Source of the DNA: a virus
Virus record (IMG/VR): IMGVR_UViG_3300034104_005687
Location: 186,001 to 250,000 of that record
Reading direction: 5' to 3' (one strand)
Length of the DNA: 64,000 nucleotides
Shown here in pieces: positions 17,578 through 36,722 of the stretch. The notes under the pieces are model-generated. The model made no database searches and was not told the origin of the DNA. It worked only from the letters and a program-made list of their open reading frames with translations. A program made the position numbers and the translations under genes. The stretch's first letter is position 1; the number at the start of each line of letters is the position of its first letter.

Positions 17578-17946
17578 ATGCACATTATATTTGGCGACGA
17601 TGCTAAAAAACTAGCAGACAAGTTCACTGTGTTGGAATTAGACACTGTTAAACTCAACGAAACAGATCAAAAAGTAACATCATACTGCATAGTGGAAAAT
17701 ATCCCGCTGGGAGACTTTCCGGTTGTGGATGCCTATGTAAAGGTACACCATGACATGATGCAGTCTTATCGAGATCAGAACTGGGACTATTGTGAGTCTG
17801 CAATCAAGGGACTAACTGGAAAATGGAACGGAGAACTTGATACTTTCTATCAAATCATGTTTGACCGTGTGAGCCTGTTGAGAACACAAACATTGGAACC
17901 CGGGTGGGACGGCACAATTGAAAAATCTGTGTCACAGCCTGCTTAA
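17578..17946 (+). CDS. Stand-alone protein resembling the C-terminal tail of the CHASE2 cyclase
   Basis: A 122-residue protein. The second half (YRDQNWDYCESAIK, then WNGELDTFYQIMFDRV, RTQTLEPGWDGT) lines up with the end of the cyclase encoded at 22026 (YRLQKFDAAIILCQEL, GKMAGYYEMWIERC, KTQTLPSDWNGV). In cyclases this tail is a small helical tetratricopeptide-like unit behind the catalytic domain. Here it stands alone with an unrelated N terminus (VLELDTVKLNETDQKV). AAAAGGAAATC precedes the ATG. A partner or regulator of signalling is possible; function is unknown. Confidence 0.6.
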   Translation: MHIIFGDDAKKLADKFTVLELDTVKLNETDQKVTSYCIVENIPLGDFPVVDAYVKVHHDMMQSYRDQNWDYCESAIKGLTGKWNGELDTFYQIMFDRVSLLRTQTLEPGWDGTIEKSVSQPA

Positions 17947-17984: not shown

Positions 17985-19229
17985 ATGAAAAAAATTGGAT
18001 TCATTGGCATTGGCAAACTGGGACTGGACTGTGCCGAAGTCATGGCAGAAAAACATGAAGTTCGAGGTTACGACATTTATCCACGAACTAGCAACGTGGT
18101 AAAAGTTTGCGGCATTGAAGAATTAGTCACAGAAAGTGACTGGATTTTTGTTGCTGTACCTACACCACACACTGAAGGCTACGATGGTAGTGTACCATCA
18201 AGTCACATGAAGCCCAAGGACTTTGGACACGATGCAGTGATTGATGCCATCAACAACATCAATCAGTATGCCACTACACCCAAAAAGATTGTGCTGATCA
18301 GCACAGTGTTGCCGGGCACAACACGCCGCAAGTTTGTGCCGTTGTTGGATCCCAAGCACGAATTTGTGTACAATCCTTATCTCATTGCCATGGGCAGCGT
18401 GAAGTGGGACATGGTCAATCCCGAAATGGTCATGATTGGCACCGAAGACGGCAGCATGACTGGTATTGCTGGCGAACTGATTGAATTGTACAAAACAGTG
18501 ATGGAAAATGATCCACGCTACGAAGTAGGTACCTGGGACGAATGCGAAGCCATCAAGATCTTCTACAATACATTTATTAGTGCCAAAGTTGGATTGGTCA
18601 ATATGATTCAGGATTTTGCACTTAAAATTGGCAACATCAACGTTGACGTTGTGACCAATGCGCTGGCTCGTAGTACCATGCGTATCATGGGACCCAAGTA
18701 CATGACTGCTGGCATGGGTGATGCAGGTGCTTGCCATCCACGTGACAACATTGCACTGCGTTGGTTGGCCAAAGAGTACGACATCGGCTATGACCTGTTT
18801 GACACTGTGATGCATGCCAGAGAAATTCAAGCAAAAAATCTTGCCAAGTTCTTGTTTGACACTGCTGCCCAGGATCAAAAGTTCTTGCCTATTGTGATTC
18901 ACGGCAAGGCCTACAAGCCCGACGTTGAATACTGCATTGGCAGCTACAGCACCTTGGTAGGGCACTACCTTCAGAAAATGGGTGTGGAGGTCAAATATGT
19001 AGACCCATTGGCCGATGATGCCACAGATGTTGTTGCAGAGATTGAAGGTCCAGCAGTTTACTTGTGGGCACATAACCGCAAGATCACATATGAGTACACT
19101 GGCGAGCAGGCAGAAACACAACCCTACTGCAAAATTGCCACAGGTTCGGTGATTGTGGATCCGTGGCGCAAGCTGGAATCCACCGACGATGTTCGGGTAA
19201 TTCATTATGGCAACACCCGCAGCCATTAA
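17985..19229 (+). CDS. UDP-glucose/GDP-mannose 6-dehydrogenase family protein
   Basis: A 414-residue protein that would oxidise a nucleotide sugar to its uronic acid with NAD. The N-terminal Rossmann motif is GFIGIGKLGLD (residues 4-14), then VAVPTPH. The central domain has the conserved YNPYLIAMG segment and the catalytic cysteine in GACHPRDNIAL (family signature G-x-C-x-P-x-D). The C-terminal domain has GKAYKPDVEYCIGSYS. All catalytic residues are present. The product would feed surface polysaccharide. Head of a cassette with the oxygenase and amidinotransferase genes, all overlapping. Confidence 0.88.
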   Translation: MKKIGFIGIGKLGLDCAEVMAEKHEVRGYDIYPRTSNVVKVCGIEELVTESDWIFVAVPTPHTEGYDGSVPSSHMKPKDFGHDAVIDAINNINQYATTPKKIVLISTVLPGTTRRKFVPLLDPKHEFVYNPYLIAMGSVKWDMVNPEMVMIGTEDGSMTGIAGELIELYKTVMENDPRYEVGTWDECEAIKIFYNTFISAKVGLVNMIQDFALKIGNINVDVVTNALARSTMRIMGPKYMTAGMGDAGACHPRDNIALRWLAKEYDIGYDLFDTVMHAREIQAKNLAKFLFDTAAQDQKFLPIVIHGKAYKPDVEYCIGSYSTLVGHYLQKMGVEVKYVDPLADDATDVVAEIEGPAVYLWAHNRKITYEYTGEQAETQPYCKIATGSVIVDPWRKLESTDDVRVIHYGNTRSH

Positions 19230-20639: not shown

Positions 20640-20664
20640 CCAATATTCAGCTTTGTTGTATAAT
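20636..20664 (+). promoter_or_regulatory. Sigma70-type promoter giving a leaderless transcript
   Basis: TTGACC, 17-bp spacer, TATAAT. The -10 ends 6 bases before the ATG of the UV endonuclease gene, so transcription should start at or next to that ATG. Confidence 0.85.
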
Positions 20665-20670
20665 ACAAGC

Positions 20671-21699
20671 ATGAATACACATCCTCGAATTGGCTTCTGT
20701 TGCAAATGGCTCAATGACCCGTCCGAATGCGGCGGCATGAAAGTCAATGCAGTAGACCGGGACCTTAACGGGCGTTCAACCACTATGCGCTGGCTTCGCG
20801 AACACAAAGATGAAGCTGAACAGCGCCAGTGGGACATTATGAATCACAATGCCAGAGCCGCTGTGAAAATGATCGAGCGTGTGGCTACACTGCCGCCTGA
20901 ACGGCGCATGGTACGACTGGGTAGTGAAATGTTGCAAGGCTACACTGAACCCAGTTGGATTGACTGGTGGCAACAACCTGACATACAACGTCATTTGGAA
21001 CAGATCTTTGCACCCATTGGCGAAACTGCTCGTAGACTGGATGTGAGACTGAGCTTCCATCCTGGGCAGTTTTGTGTGCTGGCCAGCGAAGCCGATGAGA
21101 TTGTGGAACGCAGTATCCTGGAATTTGAGTATCATGTGGACATGGCTCGTTGGATGGGCTATGGTAGCACATGGCATGATCATGGCTTTATGATCAATGT
21201 ACACTTGAGCGGCCGAGGTGGTACTGCCAAGTTCTTGCAGACTTTGAGTCGCATGACTCCCGAAGCCCGCAATCTTATTACTATAGAAAACGACGAAATA
21301 TCAAATGGGCTTGACTCTACTCTTACTGTGGGCCAGCATGTGGCTCTTGTGTTGGACATACACCATCACTGGGTTAACACAGGTGAATATATCAGTGCCC
21401 AAGATGATCGCACTCAGCGGGTTATTGACAGTTGGCGTGGTGTGCGCCCTGGCATGCATTACAGTGTTAGCCGCGAAGATCTTCTTGTGGGTCATTGTAC
21501 CCGAACTCGGCCCGATCTTGCAGTCCTCATGGGTCAGGGCATGAAGAAACAAAAGATTCGAGCACATTCAGACTTTATGTGGAATTCTGCTGTGACTGAA
21601 TGGGCACTGACGTTTGCTGATCAGTTCGATATCGAAGTCGAAGCCAAAGGCAAAAATCTTGCCAGCGAACAAGTTTACAGGCAGTTGATCAATGGTTAA
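20671..21699 (+). CDS. uvsE: UV damage endonuclease, UvsE/UvdE family
   Basis: A 342-residue TIM-barrel endonuclease that nicks 5' of UV photoproducts. Conserved segments: IGFCCKWLN at the N terminus, RLSFHPGQFCVLAS (metal His), MINVHLSG, LITIENDEIS (metal Glu), LVLDIHHHWVNTGEY (metal Asp and His) and IRAHSDFMWN. All metal ligands appear present. The ATG at 20671 directly follows the promoter; the in-frame ATG at 20653 lies inside the promoter. There is no ribosome-binding site, so a leaderless mRNA is likely. Would repair phage or host DNA in sunlit water. Confidence 0.92.
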   Translation: MNTHPRIGFCCKWLNDPSECGGMKVNAVDRDLNGRSTTMRWLREHKDEAEQRQWDIMNHNARAAVKMIERVATLPPERRMVRLGSEMLQGYTEPSWIDWWQQPDIQRHLEQIFAPIGETARRLDVRLSFHPGQFCVLASEADEIVERSILEFEYHVDMARWMGYGSTWHDHGFMINVHLSGRGGTAKFLQTLSRMTPEARNLITIENDEISNGLDSTLTVGQHVALVLDIHHHWVNTGEYISAQDDRTQRVIDSWRGVRPGMHYSVSREDLLVGHCTRTRPDLAVLMGQGMKKQKIRAHSDFMWNSAVTEWALTFADQFDIEVEAKGKNLASEQVYRQLING

Positions 21700-22010: not shown

Positions 22011-22025
22011 ACGGCTAAATATTTG

Positions 22026-24068
22026 ATGCTTAAAAAAATTCTAACAAGTCCGTGGACAGCATTGGTTACACTGGCACTGGTATTGGGAGTAAGGATTGCA
22101 GATCCTGGCTTTGTGGAAAGTGTGAGACTGCGATATTTTGATACCTTGATCACTGGTCAGCCCGCTGTGCAAAACAACATACACACAGTGGACATAGATG
22201 AAGCAGCCCTGGAAAAATACGGACAATGGCCATTTCCACGTGATCAGTATGCCAGAATAATACAAGATCTCTACAGTAGAAATGCTGGCTTGGTGGTATT
22301 CAATGTGTTGATGCCTAACCCAGATCGTGCTGGCCAAGATGCAGCACTGGCTCGAGTTCTACGACAACACCCAGTGATACTGCCCAGTGTGCCCAGTGAT
22401 CGCACACAGAATCAGCCGCGTGTGCCTGGCTCTGCTGTGATTGGTGCAGAATGGGCCGATTCAATTGTGCAGTATCCCGGTATGATTGCCAACGTACCTG
22501 TGCTGGAAAATGCAGCCGCAGGTGTGGGCATTGTGGGAACCATGCCTGAAATTGACGGTGTGAATCGACGTGTGCCCTTGGTGGTCACTGTGGATGATCG
22601 CATCTATCCTGCATTGAGCCTGGAAGTATTGCGTGTGACAGCAGGAGACAACACTGTGCAGGTCAAGCTTGGTGAATTTGGTGTGGAAAAAATGCGTGTG
22701 CCTCAGTTTGGCCCTGTGACCACAGACAGTCTGGGCCGTGTCTGGATAGACTGGAGTCAACGCAGTCACAGTCACAGTCTTGTGAATTTACCACAGGACT
22801 TTGGCGGTGGTATTGTGATAGTGGGTCCCACTGCTGCCGGCATCGGTAATCCTGTGCCCACTGCTGTTGGTGCTGTGTTCCCGCATCAGTTGCAGGCCGC
22901 AGTGTCAGCGACCATGATCAATCAAGTGGTTATACAACGCCCTGCATATGCTGACTCTGCAGAAATTATAGCTGTGTTGCTGGCTAGTGTGTTGTTGTTG
23001 TTTTTGACAAGGTGGACTTATGTTGGACTTGCCTCAGTGGTTGTATTGGTCGGTGGCGGTGTTGCTGGCAGTATGTTTGCTTACAGCCATCTTTTATGGT
23101 TATTTGATGCTACTGCCTTTGCAGTTGGCACAACTTTGGTCGCTCTGCATGCCTATGGCGTCAAGTTTGTGAGTGAGTTCCTTCAGAAGCAAGCCATCAA
23201 GAAACAGTTTGCAGGCTATGCAAGTCCCACAGTGGTCCGACTGTTGCAGGAAAATCCAGACCTGATCAAGAAAGGCACCAAGCGTGAAGTCAGTATCTGC
23301 TTCTCAGACTTGCGTGGTTTTACACCGCTAGGCGAAAGCTTTGGCGACGATGTAGGCGGACTCACTGAAGTCATGAACGGCTACATGGATGCTATCACAC
23401 AGCCAGTGCTGGAAGCCAACGGCATGATCATCAAGTACATTGGTGATGCCAGCATGCACATACACAATGCTCCTATAGACGATCCTGATCATGCCAAGAC
23501 TGCTGTAGCTGTAGGGCTAAAGATGGTCAAGGCTGTGAAAGAGTTCAGCAAACAACTGGAGGCCAAAGGTCGTCCAGGTGTCAAGATGGGCGCAGGTATC
23601 AACACTGGTCTGGGCTACATTGGCGAAATGGGTTCTACAGCACGTCACAGTTATGATGTATTGGGCGATGCTGTGAGCACAACAGCACGTATTGAAAGCA
23701 AGTGCAAAGAATACGGCTGTGTGTTGTTGGTAGGTGAAGAAACTGTTCGACGTTGTGGAGATGATTTTTTCTTTCTCAAGATCGACGATCTAGCAGTGAA
23801 AGGAAAGTCAGTGGGCGTAGGTATATGCACTGTGCTAGATGATGTCACTGAAGCATATTATCGAGCCAAGCTCACACACAACAAGATGCACGAACTGTAT
23901 AGACTACAAAAATTCGATGCTGCTATTATCTTGTGTCAAGAACTCATGAACGAGTTTGATGGAAAAATGGCTGGCTATTACGAAATGTGGATTGAACGTT
24001 GCGAGTTCCAAAAGACACAGACACTACCGTCAGACTGGAACGGGGTTTTTATTGCTACGTCAAAGTGA
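22026..24068 (+). CDS. CHASE2-domain transmembrane class III nucleotide cyclase
   Basis: A 680-residue membrane receptor enzyme. Residues 1-25 are hydrophobic; about 30-305 form an extracytoplasmic CHASE2 sensor (VDIDEAALEKYGQWPFPRD is typical). Three membrane helices follow at about 309-385, then the cyclase domain. Metal Asp residues are in CFSDLRGFTPLG and YIGDASMHIHNAP; the substrate-binding Lys is present (MIIKYIGD). The transition-state motif reads LGDAVSTTARIES: the Arg is kept but the usual Asn is Ser. A helical tail of about 60 residues follows. The start is ATG 22026; an upstream TTG is in frame. It would make cAMP or cGMP in response to an outside signal, if active. Confidence 0.9.
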   Translation: MLKKILTSPWTALVTLALVLGVRIADPGFVESVRLRYFDTLITGQPAVQNNIHTVDIDEAALEKYGQWPFPRDQYARIIQDLYSRNAGLVVFNVLMPNPDRAGQDAALARVLRQHPVILPSVPSDRTQNQPRVPGSAVIGAEWADSIVQYPGMIANVPVLENAAAGVGIVGTMPEIDGVNRRVPLVVTVDDRIYPALSLEVLRVTAGDNTVQVKLGEFGVEKMRVPQFGPVTTDSLGRVWIDWSQRSHSHSLVNLPQDFGGGIVIVGPTAAGIGNPVPTAVGAVFPHQLQAAVSATMINQVVIQRPAYADSAEIIAVLLASVLLLFLTRWTYVGLASVVVLVGGGVAGSMFAYSHLLWLFDATAFAVGTTLVALHAYGVKFVSEFLQKQAIKKQFAGYASPTVVRLLQENPDLIKKGTKREVSICFSDLRGFTPLGESFGDDVGGLTEVMNGYMDAITQPVLEANGMIIKYIGDASMHIHNAPIDDPDHAKTAVAVGLKMVKAVKEFSKQLEAKGRPGVKMGAGINTGLGYIGEMGSTARHSYDVLGDAVSTTARIESKCKEYGCVLLVGEETVRRCGDDFFFLKIDDLAVKGKSVGVGICTVLDDVTEAYYRAKLTHNKMHELYRLQKFDAAIILCQELMNEFDGKMAGYYEMWIERCEFQKTQTLPSDWNGVFIATSK

Positions 24069-24767
24069 TCGAACGTGTGCCAGCCCAAATAGATTAAAAA
24101 TTTTAAACCAGGCCCAGCCTAGATCAAATTCCCAACTTTGCTGACTCAGCTTGGGGCTGGCAGGTTGTGCATGGTGATTGTTGTGCAGTTCTTCTCCGCC
24201 TATAACAATGCCCCAAGGCACAATGTTGGTGCTGTGATCCTTGGTATCAGTGTTGCGATACCCCCACCAATGTCCTAATCCATTTACCACACCTGCTGCC
24301 CAAAAAGGTATCCAGGCCATTTGCACCAGCCACATCACAATACCCCAACCATGAAACAACCATACTTCCAAACACAGCAATGCAACAATGCCTAGTTTGC
24401 AGTGCGGAGCGTACAAGTTGCGTTCGATCCAGTCGGTGGGTGTACCTTTGCTGAAGTTGTTGACCATTTGTGTGTCTTTGCTGGCATCATTGTACAGCCA
24501 GGCGCCGTGCCATAACACGCGGCCAATGCCAAACACATGTGGGCTGTGTGGATCACCAGGCTTGTCTGTTGCACTGTGATGTTTGCGATGTATCGCTACC
24601 CACTGACTTGTGACCATTCCAGTTGTAAGCCATAACCAAGCTCGCATAAAATGTTCTAGCACAGGATGAAACACCATGCTTTTATGTGCCTGTCCACGAT
24701 GTAGATACAGAGTAACGCACACAATGGTGATGTGCGTCATCACCAAAGTGATCAAAAGTTCTGTCAT
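24060..24767 (-). CDS. Fatty-acid desaturase
   Basis: A 235-residue integral membrane di-iron enzyme of the acyl-CoA/acyl-lipid delta-9 type. The three His boxes are HRGQAH (residues 23-28), HRKHH (60-64) and HNNHH near residue 197. Hydrophobic spans lie at the N terminus and at about 120-160. All eight iron-ligand His are present. It would introduce double bonds into membrane lipids, changing fluidity during infection. Its 3' end overlaps that of the cyclase gene by 9 bases. It follows two holin-like genes in the same minus-strand operon. Confidence 0.92.
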   Translation of the reverse strand: MTELLITLVMTHITIVCVTLYLHRGQAHKSMVFHPVLEHFMRAWLWLTTGMVTSQWVAIHRKHHSATDKPGDPHSPHVFGIGRVLWHGAWLYNDASKDTQMVNNFSKGTPTDWIERNLYAPHCKLGIVALLCLEVWLFHGWGIVMWLVQMAWIPFWAAGVVNGLGHWWGYRNTDTKDHSTNIVPWGIVIGGEELHNNHHAQPASPKLSQQSWEFDLGWAWFKIFNLFGLAHVRSL

Positions 24768-24770
24768 TGA

Positions 24771-25127
24771 TTAACCTTCGCCTGCAGTAGCAGTTTTTTT
24801 GTCTTCGTCGTCGACTTTGCCTTGTATGGCTTTTTGGAATTTGTCACTGGCTTCGGTGTCTACTTTGACAGACTCTAGCACACGCTCGCTTTCTATGATC
24901 TTGCCACGCAGGTGCAGCACAGTGTTGACTTTTTGGTTGAGTCTGATCAAGTCGTTGTCCAGCATGCGTATACGATCAATCAGTGCTATCAAGGTAGCAT
25001 TGGCTTCGCTCAGCACTGGCTTGATTTCTTTGGTGGCCCATTGCCACACGTAGAAAATCAAATATCCCATGCCCCCTGCGGCCACTATGGGAAACCCGTA
25101 TTTGTTGATTAATTCAGCTATGTCCAT
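24771..25127 (-). CDS. Holin-like small membrane protein (copy 1)
   Basis: A 118-residue protein with one membrane helix at about residues 12-32 (FPIVAAGGMGYLIFYVWQW), a long charged helical region and a hydrophilic C terminus. This arrangement and the N terminus MDIAELINKYGFPIV resemble holin-like proteins of marine T4-like phages. The start at 25127 is preferred over 25142. It shares layout with the gene at 25325-25606 (EVGFPIASAIAAGY), so the two look like paralogs. Confidence 0.6.
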   Translation of the reverse strand: MDIAELINKYGFPIVAAGGMGYLIFYVWQWATKEIKPVLSEANATLIALIDRIRMLDNDLIRLNQKVNTVLHLRGKIIESERVLESVKVDTEASDKFQKAIQGKVDDEDKKTATAGEG

Positions 25128-25344
25128 TTTGTGTTCTTTCATTCAGTGTCTGACCCATGGTAAATGCCACCAGTGGATCAATGCGTTCTAGTTGAGCACG
25201 ACCGTCTATGTTGACCAGTCGAAAAAAATCGCCAGCATTCCAGCCCAGCCTGTCAAGGTCGAGTTCTTCGTCCAGCACAATCCTGTCGTGACTTAGATCC
25301 CATGTATAATCCAAGTACAGCACATTAGTCTCTTCTAGCGTCAT
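25114..25344 (-). CDS. Hypothetical acidic protein between two holin-like genes
   Basis: A 76-residue protein (start ATG 25344; a TTG lies in frame at 25365). Acidic beta-strand pattern: VLYLDYTWDLSHDRIVLDEE, then LGWNAGDFFRLVNIDG. The WNAGDFF part recalls small AbrB/SH3-like phage proteins. It overlaps both flanking genes, 20 bases at its start and 14 at its end, so it is part of the operon. Function unknown. Confidence 0.65.
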   Translation of the reverse strand: MTLEETNVLYLDYTWDLSHDRIVLDEELDLDRLGWNAGDFFRLVNIDGRAQLERIDPLVAFTMGQTLNERTQNGHS

Positions 25345-25606
25345 TTTTACCGTCTGCTCGTGCAATACGATCTACGTCTGGGCGCAGTCCCAGTGCATTG
25401 CTCACAATAGTGTCAATGCGAATCACGTCGTGGTTCATGGTTTTTACACGATTGTCCAGGGCACCAATAATGCCTTTGAGGCCGTTTACGGTGCTGGTTA
25501 CACCAGCCAAGATAAACTTCAGTGTCAAAAACACAAAATACCCTGCGGCAATAGCTGATGCAATGGGAAATCCTACTTCAGCTACCAATTTAAAAAACTC
25601 ACCCAT
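25325..25606 (-). CDS. Holin-like small membrane protein (copy 2)
   Basis: A 93-residue protein with a membrane helix at about residues 9-34 (VGFPIASAIAAGYFVFLTLK) and a charged helical C terminus ending DGKNDARRD. AAAGGAG precedes the ATG and a late-type promoter lies 21 bases upstream. Paralogous in layout to the protein at 24771-25127. A role in lysis timing is suggested by topology and late expression, not shown. Confidence 0.65.
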   Translation of the reverse strand: MGEFFKLVAEVGFPIASAIAAGYFVFLTLKFILAGVTSTVNGLKGIIGALDNRVKTMNHDVIRIDTIVSNALGLRPDVDRIARADGKNDARRD

Positions 25607-25626: not shown

Positions 25627-25633
25627 TATTTAC
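25627..25633 (-). promoter_or_regulatory. T4-late-like promoter element
   Basis: On the minus strand GTAAATA, 21 bases before the ATG at 25606, with AAAGGAG between. It lies inside the 3' end of the FecR-domain gene. Confidence 0.55.
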
Positions 25634-26724
25634 CGTTGTGTGATGTTGATTCGGGTGGTGCCGCCGTTGTTGACCTGCTGATACAGCATTACCCCTGCTT
25701 GATTGGCTTGTAATATAGCGTCTTGATCGCTGGGCATCCATATTTCAAATGCGTTGCCCAGATCCCTGCGCAGAATCAATCGATCTTCGTCGTCCAGATT
25801 CCATTTCAACAAACTGGATGCTTGATACCCGGGCAATATCTGATTGGTGGCCAGTATGGACTCAGCACTGGATATCATGCTAGCAGTGTCCACGTCCAGT
25901 ACACTGGCCAAGAAGTCACTGTCCAAGAAATTTTTGTCCAGTTGTCCCTTGGTGCTCAGCAGATCTTTGTTGAGCTCATCAAAATCCAAAAATTTCTGGT
26001 TCAGAAAATTAACATCCAAACTGGTTTGGCTTCGTGTCTCAACTTCTTGTGTTTTGAGTTCAGTGGGAAATGACACAATCATAAGGTTGCTGATGTTGGC
26101 AGGATCTATGTTGATTACCACAGGTGACTGCGGAGCAACGTCAACTGAACTCACAAAAGTGGCTTGGTATGCTGTGTCCATGGTCACTGATCCTGCGTTG
26201 TTGAAAACTTCAATCTTTCCAGTCACACACGATGTTGCATCACAACTGGGCAACAACATCACAATGCTGCGTCCCAATTCGTCTACGGTCATGGAAAAAT
26301 CTGTGCCACGAACTGCAATGGTGGCTGTGGGTGTTTTTACTGCTACCTGCTGTGGATTGCTTTTGGCAATCTGTCCCGACGCATACTTGGCAGTACCTAG
26401 GGCAACTTTGAGAGCCAATCTTCCAGTGCCACGATTGGCATCATACACAAAATCGTCGATCAGCAATTTGCTTTGTTCAGAGATTTTTACTGTGGTGTTG
26501 TCTTCAAAGGTCAGTTGAGCACGACTCCGTGCCGTCACAACTGTGTCATTCATTTCCACAGCCGTGTTTACTGCACTGGACACACTTTTTTTATCTCGTA
26601 CAATTTCCATGGGCCCAGTCTGTTCAGTGACTCGGCCCACCGCCGCATTAATCGGACTGTGTGATAGCAACAGTGTTGTTAGAACCAGCAGTAGAAGCAA
26701 TGATTGTTTTTGCAAGTAGGCCAC
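25630..26724 (-). CDS. Exported FecR-domain protein
   Basis: A 364-residue protein. The N terminus has a leucine-rich signal peptide (QSLLLLLVLTTLLLSHS, cleavage near NAA). A FecR-type domain follows at about 35-150: VVTARSRAQLTFEDN, VKISEQSKLLIDDF and VKTPTATIAVRGTDF. The rest is repetitive (NFLNQKFLDFDELNKDLL, with LxxDFL-like repeats near residues 230-280). The start lies 77 bases inside the curlin-like gene in another frame; no later Met would keep the signal peptide. FecR-like proteins sense or bind cell-surface structures. Position suggests a partner of the curli-like system. Confidence 0.8.
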   Translation of the reverse strand: MAYLQKQSLLLLLVLTTLLLSHSPINAAVGRVTEQTGPMEIVRDKKSVSSAVNTAVEMNDTVVTARSRAQLTFEDNTTVKISEQSKLLIDDFVYDANRGTGRLALKVALGTAKYASGQIAKSNPQQVAVKTPTATIAVRGTDFSMTVDELGRSIVMLLPSCDATSCVTGKIEVFNNAGSVTMDTAYQATFVSSVDVAPQSPVVINIDPANISNLMIVSFPTELKTQEVETRSQTSLDVNFLNQKFLDFDELNKDLLSTKGQLDKNFLDSDFLASVLDVDTASMISSAESILATNQILPGYQASSLLKWNLDDEDRLILRRDLGNAFEIWMPSDQDAILQANQAGVMLYQQVNNGGTTRINITQR

Positions 26725-27244
26725 TTTGTGTCATAGTAATTGTGTTGTTGCCGCCGTTCACTGTGTATTCCACTGTGCTAGCCCCGGTGTTGGTACTGGT
26801 GTGAGTCACTGTGTTGGTATCGCCAGTGATCACCAGTTTGCTGCTGTGATTGGCACCGCTGCCCAGATTCTGTATCACAATATTGTCGTCACCTGTGATG
26901 GTCTGAATAATGTCACTGCCGCTACATGTGGCCGATACTGATGTTCCACAGTTAACGGTCTTGACATTGTTGTTGCCATTGACTGTGAGAGTAACATTGG
27001 TAGCAGCACCGTTGACCGTTAGAGCCAAATCGTTGGCTGCACCAATTTGTTGTATGTTCACAGTGTTGCTGCCACCTCCAATGAATATGGGCGCCAGTTC
27101 TGTGCCTATTCGATTGTCTGCGCCATCCTGCAGAATTGTGATAGTGCTGCCGTTTCCTACCTGTTCCATGTATACTTTGTTTTGTGCTTGAGCAGCCCAT
27201 GCAACTGCTAACAAAGTTCCAGCGGTTATTATTTTTTTTATCAT
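26648..27244 (-). CDS. Curlin-repeat (CsgA/CsgB-like) exported protein
   Basis: A 198-residue protein. Signal peptide MIKKIITAGTLLAVAWAAQA, then a Gly/Asn/Thr/Ser-rich body with repeats of the type N-x-V-x-I-x-Q-x-G: VYMEQVGNGST, NTVNIQQIG, NIVIQNLG, NTITMTQSG, NTVAITQS. This is the pattern of amyloid curli subunits, though the repeats are less regular than in E. coli CsgA. Two Cys (near residues 98 and 105) are unusual for curlins. ATGA overlap with csgG. The ATG at 27244 is preferred over 27271. It is probably secreted through the phage CsgG pore. Confidence 0.75.
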   Translation of the reverse strand: MIKKIITAGTLLAVAWAAQAQNKVYMEQVGNGSTITILQDGADNRIGTELAPIFIGGGSNTVNIQQIGAANDLALTVNGAATNVTLTVNGNNNVKTVNCGTSVSATCSGSDIIQTITGDDNIVIQNLGSGANHSSKLVITGDTNTVTHTSTNTGASTVEYTVNGGNNTITMTQSGLLAKTIIASTAGSNNTVAITQSD

Positions 27245-28032
27245 TTGGAACCTCCTTGTTTGAAAGACCAAAGGCCTTTTCGTTCCCCTTCTTGTATCAT
27301 CTCATATACAGATTGCTCCACAGCAAGTCTAATAGCATATGTGGTAGGCTCATTGACTGCTACTCCAGCCTCTAACTCTACAGATCGTGTTCCGTCGGCT
27401 ATGAATCTCATCACACCAGTGTTGAATGCAGTACTGTACACAGTCTTGCTCACGCTGTTGCTGATCAGAATCTCGCCGGTGTTGACCGAGATCACACGCA
27501 GAGCCACAACAATTTCGTCCACACGATATTGCTTGCTTGCACCAATTCCCAGTATCCTGGCCCCGTGACCCCCAGATTTGGTATTGGCGTCAAATCCTAT
27601 GATGCCACCTTCGATTATGAGCCCAGCCACAATCATGGGCCGTAATGGTTTGGCATCCTTGCCTTCGTATACTTCACGCTGATTGCGTATGAGCTGACGT
27701 TCCTTGATCAAGTTGTCAAGACCCACTCGCTCTACCACAGTAAACCAACGTCCTGCATCCTGCAAGGCCTTGATCAAGAATACTTCAGATCCCTGTGTCA
27801 CAGCAGTGGAAAAACTGGCCAGGCGTTCGTTGGATTTTTTCTGTCCTGTTTTGTCTTGAAATCCATACACTGCCACAGTGATCGGTGGACCACTGGGTTC
27901 AGGCAGATTTTTTTGCAAGAACGTGTTGTTCTTCATGCTCTGCGGAGGCTCATACTCAACGTCGTCTCTGAAGTCAGCATCAAACGCACAACCTGACATC
28001 AACACTGCCACAATCACAATCCATTTTTTCAA
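27241..28032 (-). CDS. csgG: Curli secretion channel CsgG
   Basis: A 263-residue outer-membrane lipoprotein. The lipobox VLMSGC ends the signal peptide at about residue 15. Body: ITVAVYGFQDKTGQ, FTVVERVGLDNLIKERQLIR, IIEGGIIGFDANTKSGG (membrane-hairpin region) and YRVDEIVVALRVISVNTGEIL. These are the conserved CsgG segments, and the length matches (about 277 in E. coli). It forms a nonameric pore that exports unfolded curlin. Coupled by ATGA overlaps to csgF upstream and to the curlin-like gene downstream. Confidence 0.93.
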   Translation of the reverse strand: MKKWIVIVAVLMSGCAFDADFRDDVEYEPPQSMKNNTFLQKNLPEPSGPPITVAVYGFQDKTGQKKSNERLASFSTAVTQGSEVFLIKALQDAGRWFTVVERVGLDNLIKERQLIRNQREVYEGKDAKPLRPMIVAGLIIEGGIIGFDANTKSGGHGARILGIGASKQYRVDEIVVALRVISVNTGEILISNSVSKTVYSTAFNTGVMRFIADGTRSVELEAGVAVNEPTTYAIRLAVEQSVYEMIQEGERKGLWSFKQGGSK

Positions 28033-28469
28033 AATGCAAAACTCCCGATAGGCACAGTGATTTCAGTTCTGCTGCCATTGGCTTCTAGTATTACAAGAGT
28101 GACACTGGTTCCTGTCTTGAACCAACTAATAGAACTGCCTTGAAAGTCCAAGGTTCCTGAATCTCCTGCAGTCTCAGAAAACATAGCATCGGCTAGTTGT
28201 TTGCTGAGTTGTGCATAGATACGACTTTCCAGATTCACAATAAATTTGGACAAGGTGGTATTCTTGGCGTCTCGTTCTGCACGATCGGTCACAGATTTTG
28301 CTTCGTCGCGAAGCTTTTGCTTGCGACTGTCTTCCAGTTGTTTGATGGTCAGAACATGGCTCGAGAAACCTATTCCACTAAAACTGGGTGATGCAAACTG
28401 AAATGTCAGTTCACTGGCGTTGGCTCCCTGGGCTAAGATCAGACCGCATATTGCTATAATTTTTTTCAT
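28029..28469 (-). CDS. csgF: Curli assembly protein CsgF
   Basis: A 146-residue secreted protein. Signal peptide MKKIIAICGLILAQGANA, then LTFQFASPSFSG, the conserved N-terminal stretch that in E. coli inserts in the CsgG pore (TFQFRNPNFGG). The C-terminal region has beta-strands ending ITVPIGSF. It should couple the pore to curlin nucleation. First gene of the curli-like operon, behind a perfect late-type promoter. No csgE or csgD is seen. Confidence 0.88.
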   Translation of the reverse strand: MKKIIAICGLILAQGANASELTFQFASPSFSGIGFSSHVLTIKQLEDSRKQKLRDEAKSVTDRAERDAKNTTLSKFIVNLESRIYAQLSKQLADAMFSETAGDSGTLDFQGSSISWFKTGTSVTLVILEANGSRTEITVPIGSFAF

Positions 28470-28489
28470 GCGAAAACCCCACTATAATA

Positions 28490-28497
28490 TATTTATA
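28490..28497 (-). promoter_or_regulatory. T4-late-type promoter of the curli-like operon
   Basis: Perfect TATAAATA on the minus strand, 21 bases before the csgF start. Confidence 0.75.
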
Positions 28498-28526
28498 GCA
28501 GGGTTTCAAAAATAATCCAGGTGTTT

Positions 28527-29028: not shown

Positions 29029-29304
29029 ATGTTTACAGCAGACGCAATCATCGACACCGTTCAAACCGGTAAAAAGACTTTTGTCAACACATTCGTTACA
29101 AATGAAACTGTCAAAGACTCAATGATCAAGTTCATTGATGCTCAGGCCGAGTACACCAAAAAAGCCACCAAAGTTGGCATGGACACATTTACCACATTGA
29201 CATCCGAAGCAGTTAAGGCTGGTCAAGAAGCCATGAAATTTGACTACACCAAATTTGGTGAAGGCATCATGAAAGCTTACACAGCACAAACATCCAAAAA
29301 GTAA
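29029..29304 (+). CDS. Phasin-like protein
   Basis: A 91-residue amphipathic helical protein: MFTADAIIDTVQTGKKTFVN, then IKFIDAQAEYTKKATKVGMD and GQEAMKFDYTKFGEGIMKAY. This layout and the MFTAD-type start resemble phasins, which coat polyhydroxyalkanoate granules, but phasins are usually longer. AGGAG precedes the ATG. It is a single-gene unit with its own promoter and terminator, which suggests strong, separate expression. Confidence 0.65.
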   Translation: MFTADAIIDTVQTGKKTFVNTFVTNETVKDSMIKFIDAQAEYTKKATKVGMDTFTTLTSEAVKAGQEAMKFDYTKFGEGIMKAYTAQTSKK

Positions 29305-31497: not shown

Positions 31498-31505
31498 TAT
31501 AAATA
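31498..31505 (+). promoter_or_regulatory. TATAAATA element at the ClpP-like start
   Basis: Perfect T4-late motif, but it ends only 2 bases before the ATG at 31508. If used, the product would start at ATG 31523. Confidence 0.35.
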
Positions 31506-31507
31506 CC

Positions 31508-32092
31508 ATGCAAAATCCCAACATGAATACAGAACTAGACACAACCACATCACATACCCAAACCTTGGCCGATAACGGTATGTATGTTTTCATGGGCGAA
31601 GTTGACCATGAAAACATCAAACCCATAATTGAATGGATTTTGCACGAGAACTTTGTGTCCAAGAGAAAACGCAAAGAACTCTTGTTGATGATCTGTAGCG
31701 AAGGTGGGGACATGAGTGCCGCATTTGCCTTGATTGACGTAATGCGGAGTTCCAACATATTCATCAAAACAGTAGGGCTGGGCCAGATTGCATCAGCAGG
31801 GCTGTTGATCTTTTTGGCAGGATCTCCTGGACGCAGAACACTAACGCCCAACACTTCAATCATGAGTCATCAGTATGCCTGGGGCAATGATGGCAAGCAT
31901 CATGAACTGCTGGCCACAATTAGAGAATTTGAACTCACACAAAAACGCATGGTCAATCACTATGTGACATGCACTGGTCTAAGTGAAGAAGACATCAAGC
32001 AACACCTGTTGCCACCACATGATGTTTATTTGAGTGCAGACGATGCCCTGCGCTTGGGCATTTGTGATCATATCAGCCAACTGGCTCGTTAA
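31508..32092 (+). CDS. Divergent ClpP-family serine protease
   Basis: A 194-residue protein of the ClpP/crotonase fold. CSEGGDMSAAFALIDVMR replaces the NSPGG loop. The catalytic triad is kept: Ser96 (GQIASAG), His121 (SIMSHQ) and Asp172 (HDVYLSADDA). The N terminus is longer and unlike ClpP propeptides. It differs strongly from the second ClpP at 33838, so a mixed ClpP1-ClpP2 ring, as in mycobacteria and some cyanobacteria, is possible. Alternative start at 31523. Its stop overlaps that of the convergent gene by 4 bases. Confidence 0.82.
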   Translation: MQNPNMNTELDTTTSHTQTLADNGMYVFMGEVDHENIKPIIEWILHENFVSKRKRKELLLMICSEGGDMSAAFALIDVMRSSNIFIKTVGLGQIASAGLLIFLAGSPGRRTLTPNTSIMSHQYAWGNDGKHHELLATIREFELTQKRMVNHYVTCTGLSEEDIKQHLLPPHDVYLSADDALRLGICDHISQLAR

Positions 32093-33783
32093 CGTCGGCG
32101 TTTTTCTCTGCCCAAGGTGCCAGCATCAGTTTTGATCTCGCTGTTGGCCCGCGCTACTTTTGCTCCAGGTCCCTTGAGTCTGCCTTGAGTTACTGCATCC
32201 AAGTCATCAGTGCTTAACTTAGTTGGTGCTTCCACGCCTGAATCAGGTTCTTGAGTTTGACTGTCGTCTGCAGTTTTAGTACCCCTTTCGTTGCCCACAC
32301 TAAATGCCAAACGGCTAGTGGATTTTTTGTTGCTCTGAAAGTCACTGGCACTGAATTTAATTTTTCCAGTAAATGTCGGAGGCCATATAACATCAAATTT
32401 ACTAAATGACACACCGTCATCTTTTCTTTCTGTAAATTGATTCACTTGCACCAAGTTAGCACGGCTCAACATGAATTTGAAAAATTCTGTGGTTAGACCA
32501 ATGTTGTTATTCAGGTGTTTAACCACAAGTCTAGCCAAACTGGCTATCACATGGTAACAAATCTTGTAGTCAGGTTTGTCTGTTTTCGCACTAAAAATAC
32601 TTTTATCATTGATGATTTCTCGCAATCGAGGAGTCAACAAACGTGGATCATTGGTCTTTTGGTCTAGATTTTTTAAAGCATTGGCCGCATCGGCATCGTT
32701 GATATAGCCAAACTCTTGAGCTAGTTTAACTGGACCTTCGTACCCTCTTGAACCAGCAATGGTTCTTAGTGCGGTGATAAAATCTCCATACTTGCCGCCG
32801 GGTTCCAGCATGGCTTTGTCTTCTTCTGAAAACCGTTCTGGGTATTTGTCTATAATTTCTAATATAGAAGTAGTGCTGGCAGCACCACCCTTGCCTTCGG
32901 CTTTGTTGCTGATTCTTAACTTCACACCATTGGGCCACATAATTTGGCTGTCGTACAACGGTTCGTTTCCAGCTTCAGGATAAAACACTTGAGTGGCTGT
33001 GCTCCAACTCACTCCTAGAGGACCCAACAGCTCGCTGTCTACCTTGACATAGCTGCCTCCCACGTGTTTTCCCACTACCAATCCTAACGGAGCAGCCACT
33101 TCTCCATAGTCTACTCGTATATCTCTTTCATACGGTACCAGGCCTTGTACAGGCTCTGTACTGCCGGCCAAAGTATTGGTTAATAGTGTTTGTAGTTGTT
33201 GCGCCAGTTCAGGTCCTACTTTGTTGTCAGCGGCCAACATCTGACCTGATTTCGCTGGCACACTGGCAATGCTCATGTTGGTATTGGTAGGAATAGAAAA
33301 CTTTGGTTTCAACTCAATTCTGCTGATAACTTCTGCTTGTCGATCTTTACCTGTGCCTGTAACACGAGTCTGTTCCCAAGCTAGACCAGTTTCTCTTTCA
33401 AAATCTGCAGGAGGCCAATGCATGCCCAGACTGCCCATGTCACGTTTGTTAAAAAATCTAAAATACGGAAACAAAATGCCGTTTTGATTTTTCATTATAA
33501 TCAACATACCGGCTCCTTGTTTTGCTGGCATGCGATTTACAAATCGTATGTTTTCTTTTCCTAGACCCAGGGGTGCAATTGCAGTTTCTAATTCGGCTCC
33601 CAGTTCTGCAATAGGAGCTGCCGGAACTTGATCAGGAAACAGCAAAAGATTATCGATGGTATATCTATTTCCTTTTGCATCAAGAAAATATATTGGACGC
33701 TGTTGACTTTCTAGCCATCTTTTGGCCATACCGCCTGCTGACTCAGACAGCACATTATCTAGTAAATTGAGTAGGTCTCTCAT
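32089..33783 (-). CDS. Large hypothetical phage protein
   Basis: A 564-residue protein starting [18 protein letters not shown], a start style seen in marine T4-like phages. The start at 33783 is an ATG; a TTG four codons upstream is in frame. It has two similar wedge segments with [19 protein letters not shown] and [18 protein letters not shown], suggesting an internal repeat of a nuclease- or virion-type domain. The C terminus is charged and ends in REKRRR. No catalytic motif that I can name. It lies on the opposite strand between the two clpP genes. Confidence 0.6.
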
Positions 33784-33811
33784 TGTGGGTTCCAAAAAAA
33801 TATGTTATACT
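33783..33811 (+). promoter_or_regulatory. Possible sigma70-type promoter of clpP
   Basis: TTGTGG, 17-bp spacer, TATACT, 27 bases before the clpP ATG. Confidence 0.5.
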
Positions 33812-33837
33812 TACTTATCATTAACACAAGGAACTCT

Positions 33838-34461
33838 ATGCCAAATTTGGTACCAATCGTACTCGAACAAACTTCAAAAGGTGAACGCAGTTATGACATC
33901 TACAGTCGTTTGCTGAAAGATCGAGTGATCATGCTGGACACAGAAGTATCTGAACACACAGCCAGTCTCATAGTGGCGCAAATGCTGTTTTTGGAAAGTG
34001 ATAACCCCGACAAAGATATTTCGCTATATATAAACAGCCCAGGCGGCATTGTGACCGCAGGCCTGGCCATATACGATACCATGCAATTTATCAAGTGCGA
34101 CGTTCAAACCATTGTGATGGGCCAAGCTGCCAGCATGGGCTCTATGTTGGCTCAAGCAGGTGCACCGGGCAAGCGTTGGGTACTGCCCGAAAGCCGTACC
34201 ATGATTCACCGTGTGAGTTCAGGCACTCCGGGCACTCGCGGTAGTGTGCACGTTCAAGATCTGCAGTTTGAAGATTCAAAACGCAGTTTTGAAGAAAGTG
34301 TACGTATCAACAAGCGCCTAACTGAACTGTATGTCAAGCACAACACAGCAGGCAAGACCTATGAAGAACTGTATGAAACCATGAAGTTTGACACGTTTTT
34401 GAGTGCTGAACAAGCAGTGGCGTTTGGCCTGGCTGATCGGATTGTGGACAAACGTGTTTAA
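33838..34461 (+). CDS. clpP: ATP-dependent Clp protease proteolytic subunit ClpP
   Basis: A 207-residue protease that forms the tetradecameric chamber. SPGG (67-70), GQAASMGS with Ser99, MIHRVSSG with His124 and KFDTFLSA with Asp185 complete the triad. Length and order match bacterial ClpP. The handle region ([15 protein letters not shown]) differs from the usual GGFQGQ segment. ACAAGGAACTCT precedes the ATG at 33838; an in-frame ATG at 33802 lies in the promoter. With ClpX (13552) and ClpS (16455) it gives the phage a full Clp machine. Confidence 0.95.
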
Positions 34462-35612
34462 TGTTTTTTAGTATTGCACCTACTTTCTTGGAAAACTACC
34501 CTTGCCACTGGCAGCTGGGTAGTTTTTGTGTCAACACAGATCAAGGGTGGCACCACACTAGGTTGGGCACAGCAGAGATCTTGTACAAGGGCTATGTTGA
34601 CACAGCAATGTTGGCCCAAGTGTTGGAACAAATTTTGTTTCAAACTGAACCAATGTTGACCGGAAATTTTTGTGCATTGGTGTTGACAAACAACACAATC
34701 AAAATACAAACAGACCGATACAGAAGTTTTCCTATCTTTGTTGGCAACGGTGTCAACAATTTGATACCCACATCTCACACAGCTTGGACAGACAGCTTGG
34801 TCACAGTGCAGTCTGATCTGTCTGTGACCGAAAACAAATTTGATGTCATTGGATCTATCAATGCTGAGAATTTGTCCAAACATCAAGTGACACAGCAAAT
34901 TATCAACATTCTTGATGCCAAGACTCAGAGCTTTGTGGCCAACAATAAGTTGCCTATCAAAGTATTTTTGAGCGGCGGTGTTGACTCACTGTTGGTTTAT
35001 AGTTTTTTAAAAAAATACAGCAACAATGTTGAACTTGTGTTGGGTTCACATCATGAATGGGATTATTTCTGGGTTAAAAATTCCAGCGACATTACCAGGA
35101 ACTGGGGGTATACACAAATACATCACTGGAATCAGCACTGTGTGTTGACTTCGGGTGCACCTGGTGATGAATTTATGTTACGCAGTCCTGTCACAGCAGA
35201 TTTGTTTTTGAAACATCAAGGAATCAGCATTGTTGACTTGTTGAATGATCCCAAATGGAAAAACTGTTTGCATCAGGCATATTTTATGCAGGAAAAACAT
35301 CAACGTATATTTCAAACACAGCCATCGCCGGCTGTGACTGATCATCAACTGCACTGGGATTTGTGCAATGTTGTTGCAAATGATTGGCAACATTGGCATC
35401 TGGGTCGTACATTGACCTGGACCCCACTTCGGGATTTGGAAATTTTTAAATTGATGTTGCGACTGCCTCAACAAGATGCAATTGATCAAATAATGAACAG
35501 TCGTGTCAGCATTGACATAATTGAGCACAATAGCCCTGGACTGAGCGGTGTGCTATCACCACAAAAAAATATGCACAATCCACTGACCAATTTAGCTGGG
35601 TTGGTAGGTTAA
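34461..35612 (+). CDS. Asparagine-synthetase-like (PP-loop) protein
   Basis: A 383-residue protein. The PP-loop FLSGGVDSLLVYSFL near residue 168 binds ATP and marks AMP-forming amide synthetases. The N-terminal part (about 1-130) resembles the glutaminase half in layout but lacks the N-terminal Cys nucleophile (it starts MFFSIAP), so it would need ammonia or an amine. SGAPGDEFMLRSP is the second synthetase motif. Could make asparagine-like or macrolactam/amide bonds on a small molecule or peptide. Starts on the clpP stop; its end overlaps the convergent radical SAM gene by 21 bases. Confidence 0.78.
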   Translation: MFFSIAPTFLENYPCHWQLGSFCVNTDQGWHHTRLGTAEILYKGYVDTAMLAQVLEQILFQTEPMLTGNFCALVLTNNTIKIQTDRYRSFPIFVGNGVNNLIPTSHTAWTDSLVTVQSDLSVTENKFDVIGSINAENLSKHQVTQQIINILDAKTQSFVANNKLPIKVFLSGGVDSLLVYSFLKKYSNNVELVLGSHHEWDYFWVKNSSDITRNWGYTQIHHWNQHCVLTSGAPGDEFMLRSPVTADLFLKHQGISIVDLLNDPKWKNCLHQAYFMQEKHQRIFQTQPSPAVTDHQLHWDLCNVVANDWQHWHLGRTLTWTPLRDLEIFKLMLRLPQQDAIDQIMNSRVSIDIIEHNSPGLSGVLSPQKNMHNPLTNLAGLVG

Positions 35613-36722
35613 AATTTTGTTCAAAGTACTGCAATAGTCACTGGCAGCTATACCTTTGACCTGATCCATGGATTGAACAAAGTCGCACCACTGTTGGTGA
35701 CCATCAGCATTCCATGGCTGAGTTTGCAACCTTGTGGCAATGCTGGTCAGTGCATTTATTGCATTGTGTTGTTGTCCTGATTCAATTTTGGCATTTTTTA
35801 CCAGACCTATTGCTCTGTGTAAACTGTCAACAATTTCGTTCCGTAGTTCCACAGGCACAGTGCTTTCCAACAGGTACTCATCAAACGGTGTTCCAAATGA
35901 CACTACCTCAGGCCAATCAGGAGTCAGCAGTTCCATCAGAGATTCAAGATGATGGTAGTTGTACACCGAGGTGGTAATGTTTACTCGAGTATTGACCATG
36001 GTTTTGGCACGTTGATAATTGCTCCATACATCAGACCATACTGTGCCCATTCTTACATATTCGGCAGCACGGCCCACAGCATCAATGCTGAACACCAGAG
36101 TTATTTGGCCTTGATAGTTGTTTAAAAAATCCCAATCTATTATGGACCCATTGGTAAACATGGTCAAATTGGCAGAAAGATTTTGTTGAGCCCAGCTCAA
36201 GAATTCTCTACACGCTTTGTCGTAAAATGGTTCGCCACCTAGCAAAATTACATCACGAATTCGATGCTGAATAGGCAACAAGAATTCAAAGTCAGTGATG
36301 CGTTTGGAGTTTAAACTTTTGATATCAATCAAGCCAGCCTGACTGTGATACTGAGCAACTCTTGAACTGGCTTCGGGCCAACAAGTTTGGCAAGCAAAAT
36401 TGCAAGTATTGCCAGGGCGTATTTCTAAAGTGATGTCATTGGCGCCATAGTGTGCATACGCAGAATTCCCGTTGGCTCTCATGCTGTCTGCACGACCACG
36501 GCTTTCAATGCGGGCACAATCACTGCAAGCAGTTGGCCATTGATCCCGAGCTAGATTTTGTTGTATATTGATTACCGGCTGACTGATATGCCAGTCAGCA
36601 AGATTGGTAGTCGACAGCTGATTTTGTTGCTGCCAATTATTGTCTATTTTCCAAACACAACAAGGTTTGACCACATGATCGTAACTGATTGCTAGGCCGT
36701 TGTGTATAAATTTGCAGTCCAT
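35592..36722 (-). CDS. Radical SAM protein, twitch/SPASM type
   Basis: A 376-residue protein. The radical SAM cluster motif CNFACQTCW (CxxxCxxC) is near residue 107, followed by VILLGGEPFYDK, TMFTNGS and VFSIDAVG, the usual barrel strands. N-terminal Cys residues (VVKPCCVW, and TACSDCARIES) and C-terminal Cys residues (QWCDF, ASDYC) could hold a second Fe-S cluster as in twitch/SPASM enzymes. Such enzymes modify peptides or sugars. Four very small genes precede it on the same strand. A hairpin (CACTAG/CTAGTG, 36724-36747) lies just before its start. Confidence 0.85.
   Translation of the reverse strand: MDCKFIHNGLAISYDHVVKPCCVWKIDNNWQQQNQLSTTNLADWHISQPVINIQQNLARDQWPTACSDCARIESRGRADSMRANGNSAYAHYGANDITLEIRPGNTCNFACQTCWPEASSRVAQYHSQAGLIDIKSLNSKRITDFEFLLPIQHRIRDVILLGGEPFYDKACREFLSWAQQNLSANLTMFTNGSIIDWDFLNNYQGQITLVFSIDAVGRAAEYVRMGTVWSDVWSNYQRAKTMVNTRVNITTSVYNYHHLESLMELLTPDWPEVVSFGTPFDEYLLESTVPVELRNEIVDSLHRAIGLVKNAKIESGQQHNAINALTSIATRLQTQPWNADGHQQWCDFVQSMDQVKGIAASDYCSTLNKILTYQPS

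What the first reader, a model, noticed from the sequence alone, without database searches (positions are those of the whole stretch)
25630..28497. Curli-like export locus with its own curlin-repeat subunit in a phage genome
A minus-strand operon encodes CsgF, CsgG (lipobox present), a secreted protein with N-x-V-x-I-x-Q-x-G repeats and a FecR-domain exported protein, all overlapping and headed by a perfect TATAAATA late element. Phage-borne csgG/csgF have been seen in some marine phages as I recall, but a linked curlin-type substrate would make a self-sufficient amyloid secretion unit made late in infection. Roles could be pore-mediated lysis, superinfection exclusion, or aggregation of lysed cells.
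Basis: partly seen in the sequence, partly recalled or inferred. Interest (0 to 1): 0.8.

Follow-up and report, generated by a model that had tools for sequence, protein, structure and literature searches.

The report
Phage curli-type amyloid export gene cluster
A very large phage carries its own gene cluster for making and exporting a curli-like amyloid fibre protein, linked to a probable envelope-to-cytoplasm signalling pair; phage clusters like this have been described before, so the find is real but mostly a new member of a known kind.

Summary
On the minus strand, csgF, csgG, a secreted curlin-repeat protein and an exported FecR-domain protein overlap in that order behind a TATAAATA element. 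The window's curlin alone scores below Pfam's cut-off (15.5 vs 20.7 bits), but 48 of 53 family members match Curlin_rpt, the family profile finds a solved curlin (E 4e-14), and AlphaFold2 gives a confident all-beta repeat fold (pLDDT 88.5). The linkage is not chance: in 73 IMG/VR loci csgF (72/72), curlin (62/62) and FecR (52/52) are always present where sequence allows, under purifying selection, with a CHASE2 cyclase close by. What I add: a 349-kb member; a CX7C motif in 50/53 curlins; a curlin-like tail on FecR; SH3-like tails on some CsgG; and three alphaproteobacterial loci with the same five genes, whose CsgG groups with phage CsgG (that paper reported FecR and cyclase absent from bacterial T8SS operons). 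Best reading: a late-made curlin secretion unit whose export is monitored by FecR and a CHASE2 cyclase. The fibre's role (aggregation, superinfection exclusion or lysis) is undetermined.

The parts
28490..28497 (-). TATAAATA, T4-type late-promoter-like element, 28 nt upstream of the csgF ATG
   Evidence: Exact match; TAAATA conserved upstream of csgF in 39/56 related loci against 4 expected
28473..28507 (-). 13-bp-arm inverted repeat enclosing the TATAAATA element (possible terminator of the upstream gene or operator)
   Evidence: Arms GAAACCCTGCTAT / ATAGTGGGGTTTT (G-U pairs allowed); mean arm 8.0 against 5.8 in shuffled flanks across relatives
28029..28469 (-). csgF (146 aa, signal peptide)
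   Evidence: Pfam CsgF 2.5e-15, phrog_35372 5.8e-48; present in 72/72 loci
27241..28032 (-). csgG (263 aa, TTG start, lipoprotein; outer-membrane curli pore)
   Evidence: Pfam CsgG 1.4e-52; aligns to solved E. coli CsgG at 1.4e-49 over residues 5-258
26648..27244 (-). curlin-repeat secreted protein (198 aa, mature pI 4.5, CX7C), probable export substrate and fibre subunit
   Evidence: 48/53 family members match Curlin_rpt; profile hits 8c50 4e-14 and CsgA 8enq 2e-5; AF2 pLDDT 88.5, 16 strands; median dN/dS 0.10
25630..26724 (-). FecR-domain exported protein (364 aa, GTG start, signal peptide), 77-bp overlap with the curlin gene
   Evidence: Pfam FecR 2e-12; phrog_37870 5e-88; AF2 model matches PupR anti-sigma signalling domain
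25630..25770 (-). C-terminal curlin-like tail of the FecR protein (QxG...QxVNxGxxTxIxIxQ)
   Evidence: hhalign score 31.0 against the curlin family; 200 column shuffles max 17.3; reversed 15.4; two Gln invariant in 36/36 aligned tails
25325..25606 (-). small one-TM coiled-coil protein (93 aa), paralogue 1; probably the 'HK' of Wittmers et al., but no kinase domain
   Evidence: Family found in about 40 of the loci; no Pfam match
24771..25142 (-). small one-TM coiled-coil protein (about 120 aa), paralogue 2; weak holin-family score
   Evidence: phrog_18771 2.6e-31, phrog_4898 holin 6e-4
22023..24068 (+). CHASE2 adenylate/guanylate cyclase (681 aa), linked to the operon but on the opposite strand here
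   Evidence: Pfam CHASE2 3.5e-37, Guanylate_cyc 1.7e-17; inside the flank in 35/41 loci, and just beyond it in 4 of the other 6 that were checked

Best explanation
This is a phage-borne type VIII (curli) secretion module of the FecR/CHASE2 type. Late in infection the phage makes a CsgG:CsgF outer-membrane pore and an acidic curlin-repeat subunit, which is exported to the cell surface and assembles into a beta-solenoid amyloid. The FecR protein from the same operon sits in the periplasm. Its curlin-like C-terminal tail can join or sense curlin strands, and it signals the state of export through the CHASE2 cyclase as cyclic nucleotide. Shown by computation: the families, their conserved linkage, selection, predicted folds and tail homology. 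Inferred: late expression, export, fibre formation and signalling. Guess: the fibre coats and clumps infected cells, keeping competing phages out or bringing new hosts close.
For: csgF, csgG and FecR domains. Curlin family membership by profile and an all-beta repeat model at pLDDT 88.5, similar to 'Curlin associated' phage models. Fixed synteny: csgF 72/72, curlin 62/62, FecR 52/52, CHASE2 cyclase 35/41 plus 4 of the rest just outside the flank. Purifying selection on every part, median dN/dS 0.09-0.20. The FecR C-terminal tail resembles curlin repeats; 0 of 200 shuffles reach its score. Three alphaproteobacterial loci with ordinary metabolic neighbours carry the same five genes and their CsgG groups with phage CsgG at 100/98 support. 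FecR next to CHASE2 cyclases or kinases is an established pairing (PMC9239204; PMC5192318), and CHASE2 cyclases in Sinorhizobium respond to a protein signal through an outer-membrane barrel (PMC13001267). TAAATA is conserved upstream of csgF.
Against: No experiment on any phage curlin was found. No clumping was seen in Melnitz infections (PMC9004378). In this phage the cyclase is on the opposite strand, and its usual transition-state Asn is Ser, as in 12 of 24 phage cyclases. No CsgE was found. The tail homology rests on short, low-complexity sequence (hhalign probability only 66%). Foldseek finds no significant solved structure for the curlin model (best E 0.03).
Confidence: 0.6

Rival explanations
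1. The CsgG:CsgF pore has been turned into a lysis device (a gated outer-membrane pore or pinholin analogue) and the curlin protein is its plug or timer rather than a fibre.
For: Proposed for Melnitz from synteny (PMC9004378). The two small TM coiled-coil proteins beside the operon have a weak holin-family score and accompany the module in about 40 loci.
Against: The curlin gene is never absent (62/62) and conserves the repeat core residues with median dN/dS 0.10. CsgG:CsgF would breach only the outer membrane. FecR and CHASE2 are not needed for lysis.
Confidence: 0.17
2. The pore serves uptake of nutrients or iron compounds, with FecR as an iron-citrate-type sensor.
For: Suggested in the literature (PMC7029224; PMC9599517). 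The FecR model resembles the PupR signalling domain.
Against: No TonB-dependent receptor or sigma factor was seen in the operon. FecR is linked to a CHASE2 cyclase and ends in a curlin-like tail. It does not explain the invariant curlin.
Confidence: 0.08
3. The FecR protein is a CsgB-like nucleator or cap of the curlin fibre rather than a signal transducer, and the cyclase is only a neighbour.
For: The tail resembles the terminal curlin repeats. No other CsgB candidate was seen in this operon, whereas a few phages have a second curlin after FecR.
Against: A FecR domain is not known in nucleators. The cyclase linkage is near universal, including the bacterial loci.
Confidence: 0.15

Closest known systems
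Pelagiphage T8SS modules (Wittmers et al. 2022, PMC9599517; Zaragoza-Solas et al. 2020, PMC7029224)
   Same: csgF-csgG-curlin repeat-FecR, often a second curlin and an adenylate cyclase, preceded by one or two small genes called HK
   Different: Here in a phage record of 349 kb; one curlin only; cyclase on the opposite strand; small TM genes downstream of FecR rather than before csgF, and these lack any kinase domain
Methylophilales phage Melnitz (MZ577098) and Pelagibacter phage HTVC008M (KC465899)
   Same: Same gene order; CsgG 45-48% and FecR 43-46% identical; curlin-repeat genes annotated in GenBank
   Different: The Melnitz paper says csgA/csgB are missing although a Melnitz record annotates two curlin-repeat proteins; 141-147-kb genomes; second curlin after FecR
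Bacterial curli (Csg) operon, e.g. E. coli
   Same: CsgG pore aligned nearly end to end with solved CsgG, CsgF, curlin repeats
   Different: No CsgE and no separate CsgA/CsgB pair found; degenerate curlin repeats with a CX7C; FecR and CHASE2 cyclase added
Caulobacteraceae and Hyphomonas five-gene loci found here (L084, L086, L115)
   Same: csgF-csgG-curlin(s)-FecR-CHASE2 cyclase in one row; CsgG in the same supported clade
   Different: Among ordinary bacterial genes; two curlins or one longer curlin; canonical cyclase Asn
FecR-CHASE2 signalling clusters (Campylobacterota, PMC9239204; Burkholderia biofilm operon, PMC5192318)
   Same: Exported FecR-domain protein encoded beside a CHASE2 signalling enzyme
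   Different: No curli export genes reported there

Membership tests
Curli / type VIII secretion system | CsgG lipoprotein pore with two transmembrane hairpins | tested here: met
   Pfam 1.4e-52; aligned through both hairpin regions of solved CsgG, E 1.4e-49, one single-residue gap; lipobox Cys invariant in 21 aligned sequences. By sequence only, not modelled in 3D here
Curli / type VIII secretion system | CsgF partner | tested here: met
   Pfam CsgF 2.5e-15 across the profile (positions 6-132 of 132)
Curli / type VIII secretion system | Curlin-repeat substrate (N-x-psi-x-psi-x-Q motifs, beta-solenoid) | tested here: met
   Family: 48/53 match Curlin_rpt, profile hits curlin structures, AF2 all-beta repeats. 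The window protein alone is below the Pfam cut-off; degenerate class
Curli / type VIII secretion system | CsgE periplasmic adaptor | tested here: not met
   No match in the record; but also none in 14 alphaproteobacterial curli genomes, so either the Pfam model does not reach or CsgE is not defining outside the E. coli type
Curli / type VIII secretion system | Amyloid formed outside the cell | not testable with these tools
   Needs expression, Congo red or ThT staining, and electron microscopy
Phage T8SS-FecR-cyclase module (Wittmers et al. 2022) | Conserved order csgF-csgG-curlin-fecR with linked adenylate cyclase | tested here: met
Phage T8SS-FecR-cyclase module (Wittmers et al. 2022) | Histidine kinase gene(s) beside the module | tested here: not met
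   The equivalent small genes match no Pfam family, kinases included; they are one-TM coiled-coil proteins of 90-120 aa. Identity with the paper's HK is inferred from position and number
T4-type late promoter | TATAAATA upstream of the operon | tested here: met
   28490-28497, TAAATA conserved; use in transcription not tested
Class III adenylate cyclase (active) | Metal Asp pair, Lys, transition-state Asn and Arg | tested here: inconclusive
   Asp pair, Lys and Arg kept; Asn is Ser in the window and 11 other phage cyclases

The most novel reading that the evidence does not exclude
The phages and a rare alphaproteobacterial lineage share a dedicated export-sensing curli system: FecR docks onto curlin through a curlin-like tail and reports export or assembly through a CHASE2 cyclase, so that amyloid secretion is coupled to cyclic-nucleotide signalling, and the phage uses it to time or tune the infected cell's surface coat.
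Probability: 0.3. Interest if true: 0.75.

Novelty: new member of a known kind. Interest (0 to 1): 0.45.

Why it matters
Phage amyloid export is still a puzzle with no experimental answer that I could find, and two of the three papers treated the substrate as missing or unidentified. The conserved curlin, its tail-matched FecR partner and the bacterial counterpart give concrete, testable parts: a fibre subunit to express, a predicted FecR-curlin contact, and a cyclase read-out. The bacterial loci also narrow the possible source of the module and qualify the published statement that FecR and cyclase are not in bacterial T8SS operons.

Tried and rejected
PDB fold search of the curlin model: nothing significant, so the solenoid claim rests on strand pattern, family profile and similarity to phage curlin models. 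'Salmonella phage S.Kent' CsgG hit (OR851715, 1.5 kb, unverified): groups with gammaproteobacterial CsgG and is probably host DNA. Pelagibacter and Pirellulales MAG hits (L078, L079): CsgG branches inside the phages, probably misbinned phage contigs. CsgE loss as a mark of this lineage: rejected, because the model finds none in ordinary alphaproteobacterial curli genomes either. Searching for more bacterial FecR relatives: 1 of 299 (order) and 11 of 385 (class) genomes; the class hits other than L115 cover mainly the FecR domain, mostly in long proteins, and were not followed further. PCC_BT Pfam hit on the curlin: sub-threshold and shared by only 2 of 53 members, rejected.

Full report
What is there. 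The window is bases 186001-250000 of a 349,369-base virus record. On the minus strand, in order of transcription, lie csgF (28469-28029), csgG (28032-27241, TTG start), a secreted 198-aa protein (27244-26648) and a FecR-domain exported protein (26724-25630, GTG start). Adjacent genes overlap by 4, 4 and 77 bp. Pfam gives CsgG 1.4e-52, CsgF 2.5e-15 and FecR 2e-12. PHROGs matches the same three proteins to phage families of unknown function, so relatives were already in phage databases. The csgG product aligns with solved E. coli CsgG (3x2r) over residues 5-258 at 1.4e-49, continuous through both transmembrane hairpin regions apart from one single-residue gap.

Is the third protein a curlin? By itself it scores 15.5 bits against Curlin_rpt, under the 20.7 cut-off, and PHROGs has nothing. 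A family of 53 non-redundant homologues settles it. 48 match Curlin_rpt at E up to 0.01, best 3.7e-9. The family profile finds the solved curlin 8c50 at 4.3e-14 and CsgA (8enq) at 1.9e-5. Sleutel et al. 2023 (PMC10192328) define the motif N-x-psi-x-psi-x-Q, commonly followed by x-G. The family averages 3.4 strict motifs per protein against 0.4 in shuffles, and the window protein has 6 wide motifs against 1.2 (P 0.0014); it belongs with their degenerate class. AlphaFold2 with the family alignment gives 16 short strands at regular spacing, pLDDT 88.5, pTM 0.82. Foldseek finds 'Curlin associated' phage models (E 9e-10) but no significant solved structure.

How firm is the linkage? In 73 IMG/VR loci found by CsgG, csgF is present in 72 of 72 with enough upstream sequence, the curlin follows csgG in 62 of 62, FecR follows in 52 of 52, and a CHASE2 cyclase is inside the 6-kb flank in 35 of 41. 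Of the other six, four were checked in their whole records and have a CHASE2 protein just beyond the flank. In this window the cyclase is at 22023-24068 on the plus strand. Median dN/dS is 0.10 (curlin), 0.09 (FecR), 0.20 (csgG, including its variable tail) and 0.14 (csgF). The genes are therefore maintained together as working proteins.

Features not found in the papers I read. (1) A CX7C pair (one CX8C) is present in 50 of 53 curlins, mostly as CGTxxSAxC-like. (2) The FecR protein ends in a curlin-like tail; the C-terminal profile aligns to the last curlin repeats with hhalign score 31.0, while 200 column shuffles reach at most 17.3, the reversed profile 15.4, and other stretches of FecR at most 17.1. 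(3) 26 of 73 CsgG proteins carry a long C-terminal extension; in the three tested it ends in an SH3-like domain (SH3_3 6.5e-9 in L012; 4e-5, just under the cut-off, in two others). (4) The two small genes that Wittmers et al. appear to call histidine kinases correspond, by position and number, to 90-120-aa one-TM coiled-coil proteins without any kinase match; one has a weak holin-family score. That correspondence is my inference.

Bacterial counterpart. Among 80 CsgG loci from genome contigs, three carry csgF-csgG-curlin(s)-FecR-CHASE2 cyclase in a row: two Caulobacteraceae MAGs (L084, L086) and Hyphomonas sp. TMED17 on a 705-kb contig (L115). Their neighbours are ordinary metabolic genes. In a CsgG tree of 112 sequences, the phages and these three (with one Flavobacteriales-binned fragment and two probable misbinned phage contigs) form one side of a 100/98 split; the other side holds the CsgG of bacteria in which the phage-built FecR and cyclase models found nothing nearby. 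The tree is unrooted, so direction of transfer is not shown, and several of these rows have long branches. Wittmers et al. stated that FecR, HK and cyclase are not within bacterial T8SS operons; these loci are an exception for FecR and cyclase. The module is rare: 1 of 299 sampled genomes of the order had a close FecR match, and that one was the starting genome.

Promoter. TATAAATA at 28490-28497 is one of three in the window against 0.88 expected, so alone it is weak. TAAATA lies within 60 nt of csgF in 39 of 56 loci against 4 expected, and here it sits inside an inverted repeat with 13-bp arms. Late expression remains an inference.

How it most likely works. CsgG and CsgF make an outer-membrane pore; the acidic curlin (pI 4.5) passes through and stacks into a beta-solenoid fibre. 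FecR, whose model matches the PupR signalling domain (6ovk, 2.5e-4), sits in the periplasm. FecR next to CHASE2 enzymes is a known arrangement in Campylobacterota and in a Burkholderia biofilm operon, and Sinorhizobium CHASE2 cyclases respond to a protein through an outer-membrane barrel. The curlin-like tail suggests that what FecR contacts is curlin. Caution: the cyclase here has Ser in place of the transition-state Asn, as do 11 other phage cyclases, though metal Asp, Lys and Arg positions are kept.

What is known. Zaragoza-Solas et al. 2020 (PMC7029224) first reported csgF/csgG in phages and guessed at sibling capture. Buchholz et al. 2022 (PMC9004378) said csgA/B are missing and proposed a lysis pore, although the GenBank record of Melnitz-3 annotates two curlin-repeat proteins. 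Wittmers et al. 2022 described the full module including CsgA/B, FecR and cyclase. So the finding is a new member of a known kind, in a larger phage, with added detail that sharpens the mechanism. I found no experimental work on any phage curlin in the papers searched.

Noticed in passing
31508-32092 and 33802-34461 (+): Two ClpP-like protease genes (Pfam CLP_protease 1.7e-28 and 1.3e-62) flank a 568-aa minus-strand ORF without any family match (32089-33795); a second TATAAATA (31498-31505) lies right before the first.
   Followed up: partly
28473-28507 (-): The late-promoter-like TATAAATA sits inside an inverted repeat; many relatives show the same arrangement (TAAATA between arms such as ATTCGCT...AGCGAAT), which could be a terminator-promoter hybrid or an operator.
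   Followed up: partly
L012, L017, L053 and other CsgG genes of 340 aa or more (26 of 73 loci): Phage CsgG with a low-complexity linker and a C-terminal SH3-like domain, possibly anchoring the pore to peptidoglycan.
   Followed up: partly
17578-17946 (+), and upstream of csgF in L020, L041, L044: Small protein (about 105-140 aa) homologous to the C-terminal tail of the CHASE2 cyclase, recurring near the module.
   Followed up: no
24060-24767 (-); 20653-21699 (+); 17985-19229 (+); 35592-36722 (-): Auxiliary genes near the operon: fatty acid desaturase, UvdE endonuclease, UDP-glucose dehydrogenase, radical SAM protein.
   Followed up: no
29029-29304 (+): 91-aa protein with no family above cut-off; it reads to me like a small phasin, unconfirmed.
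   Followed up: no
22023-24068 (+) and homologues: Phage CHASE2 cyclases fall into two types: canonical VNLA(A/S)R and a VS-type variant (12 of 24), which may differ in activity.
   Followed up: partly
L004 (OR851715): A 1.5-kb 'Salmonella phage' record holds a bacterial-type csgG and is probably host contamination.
   Followed up: yes
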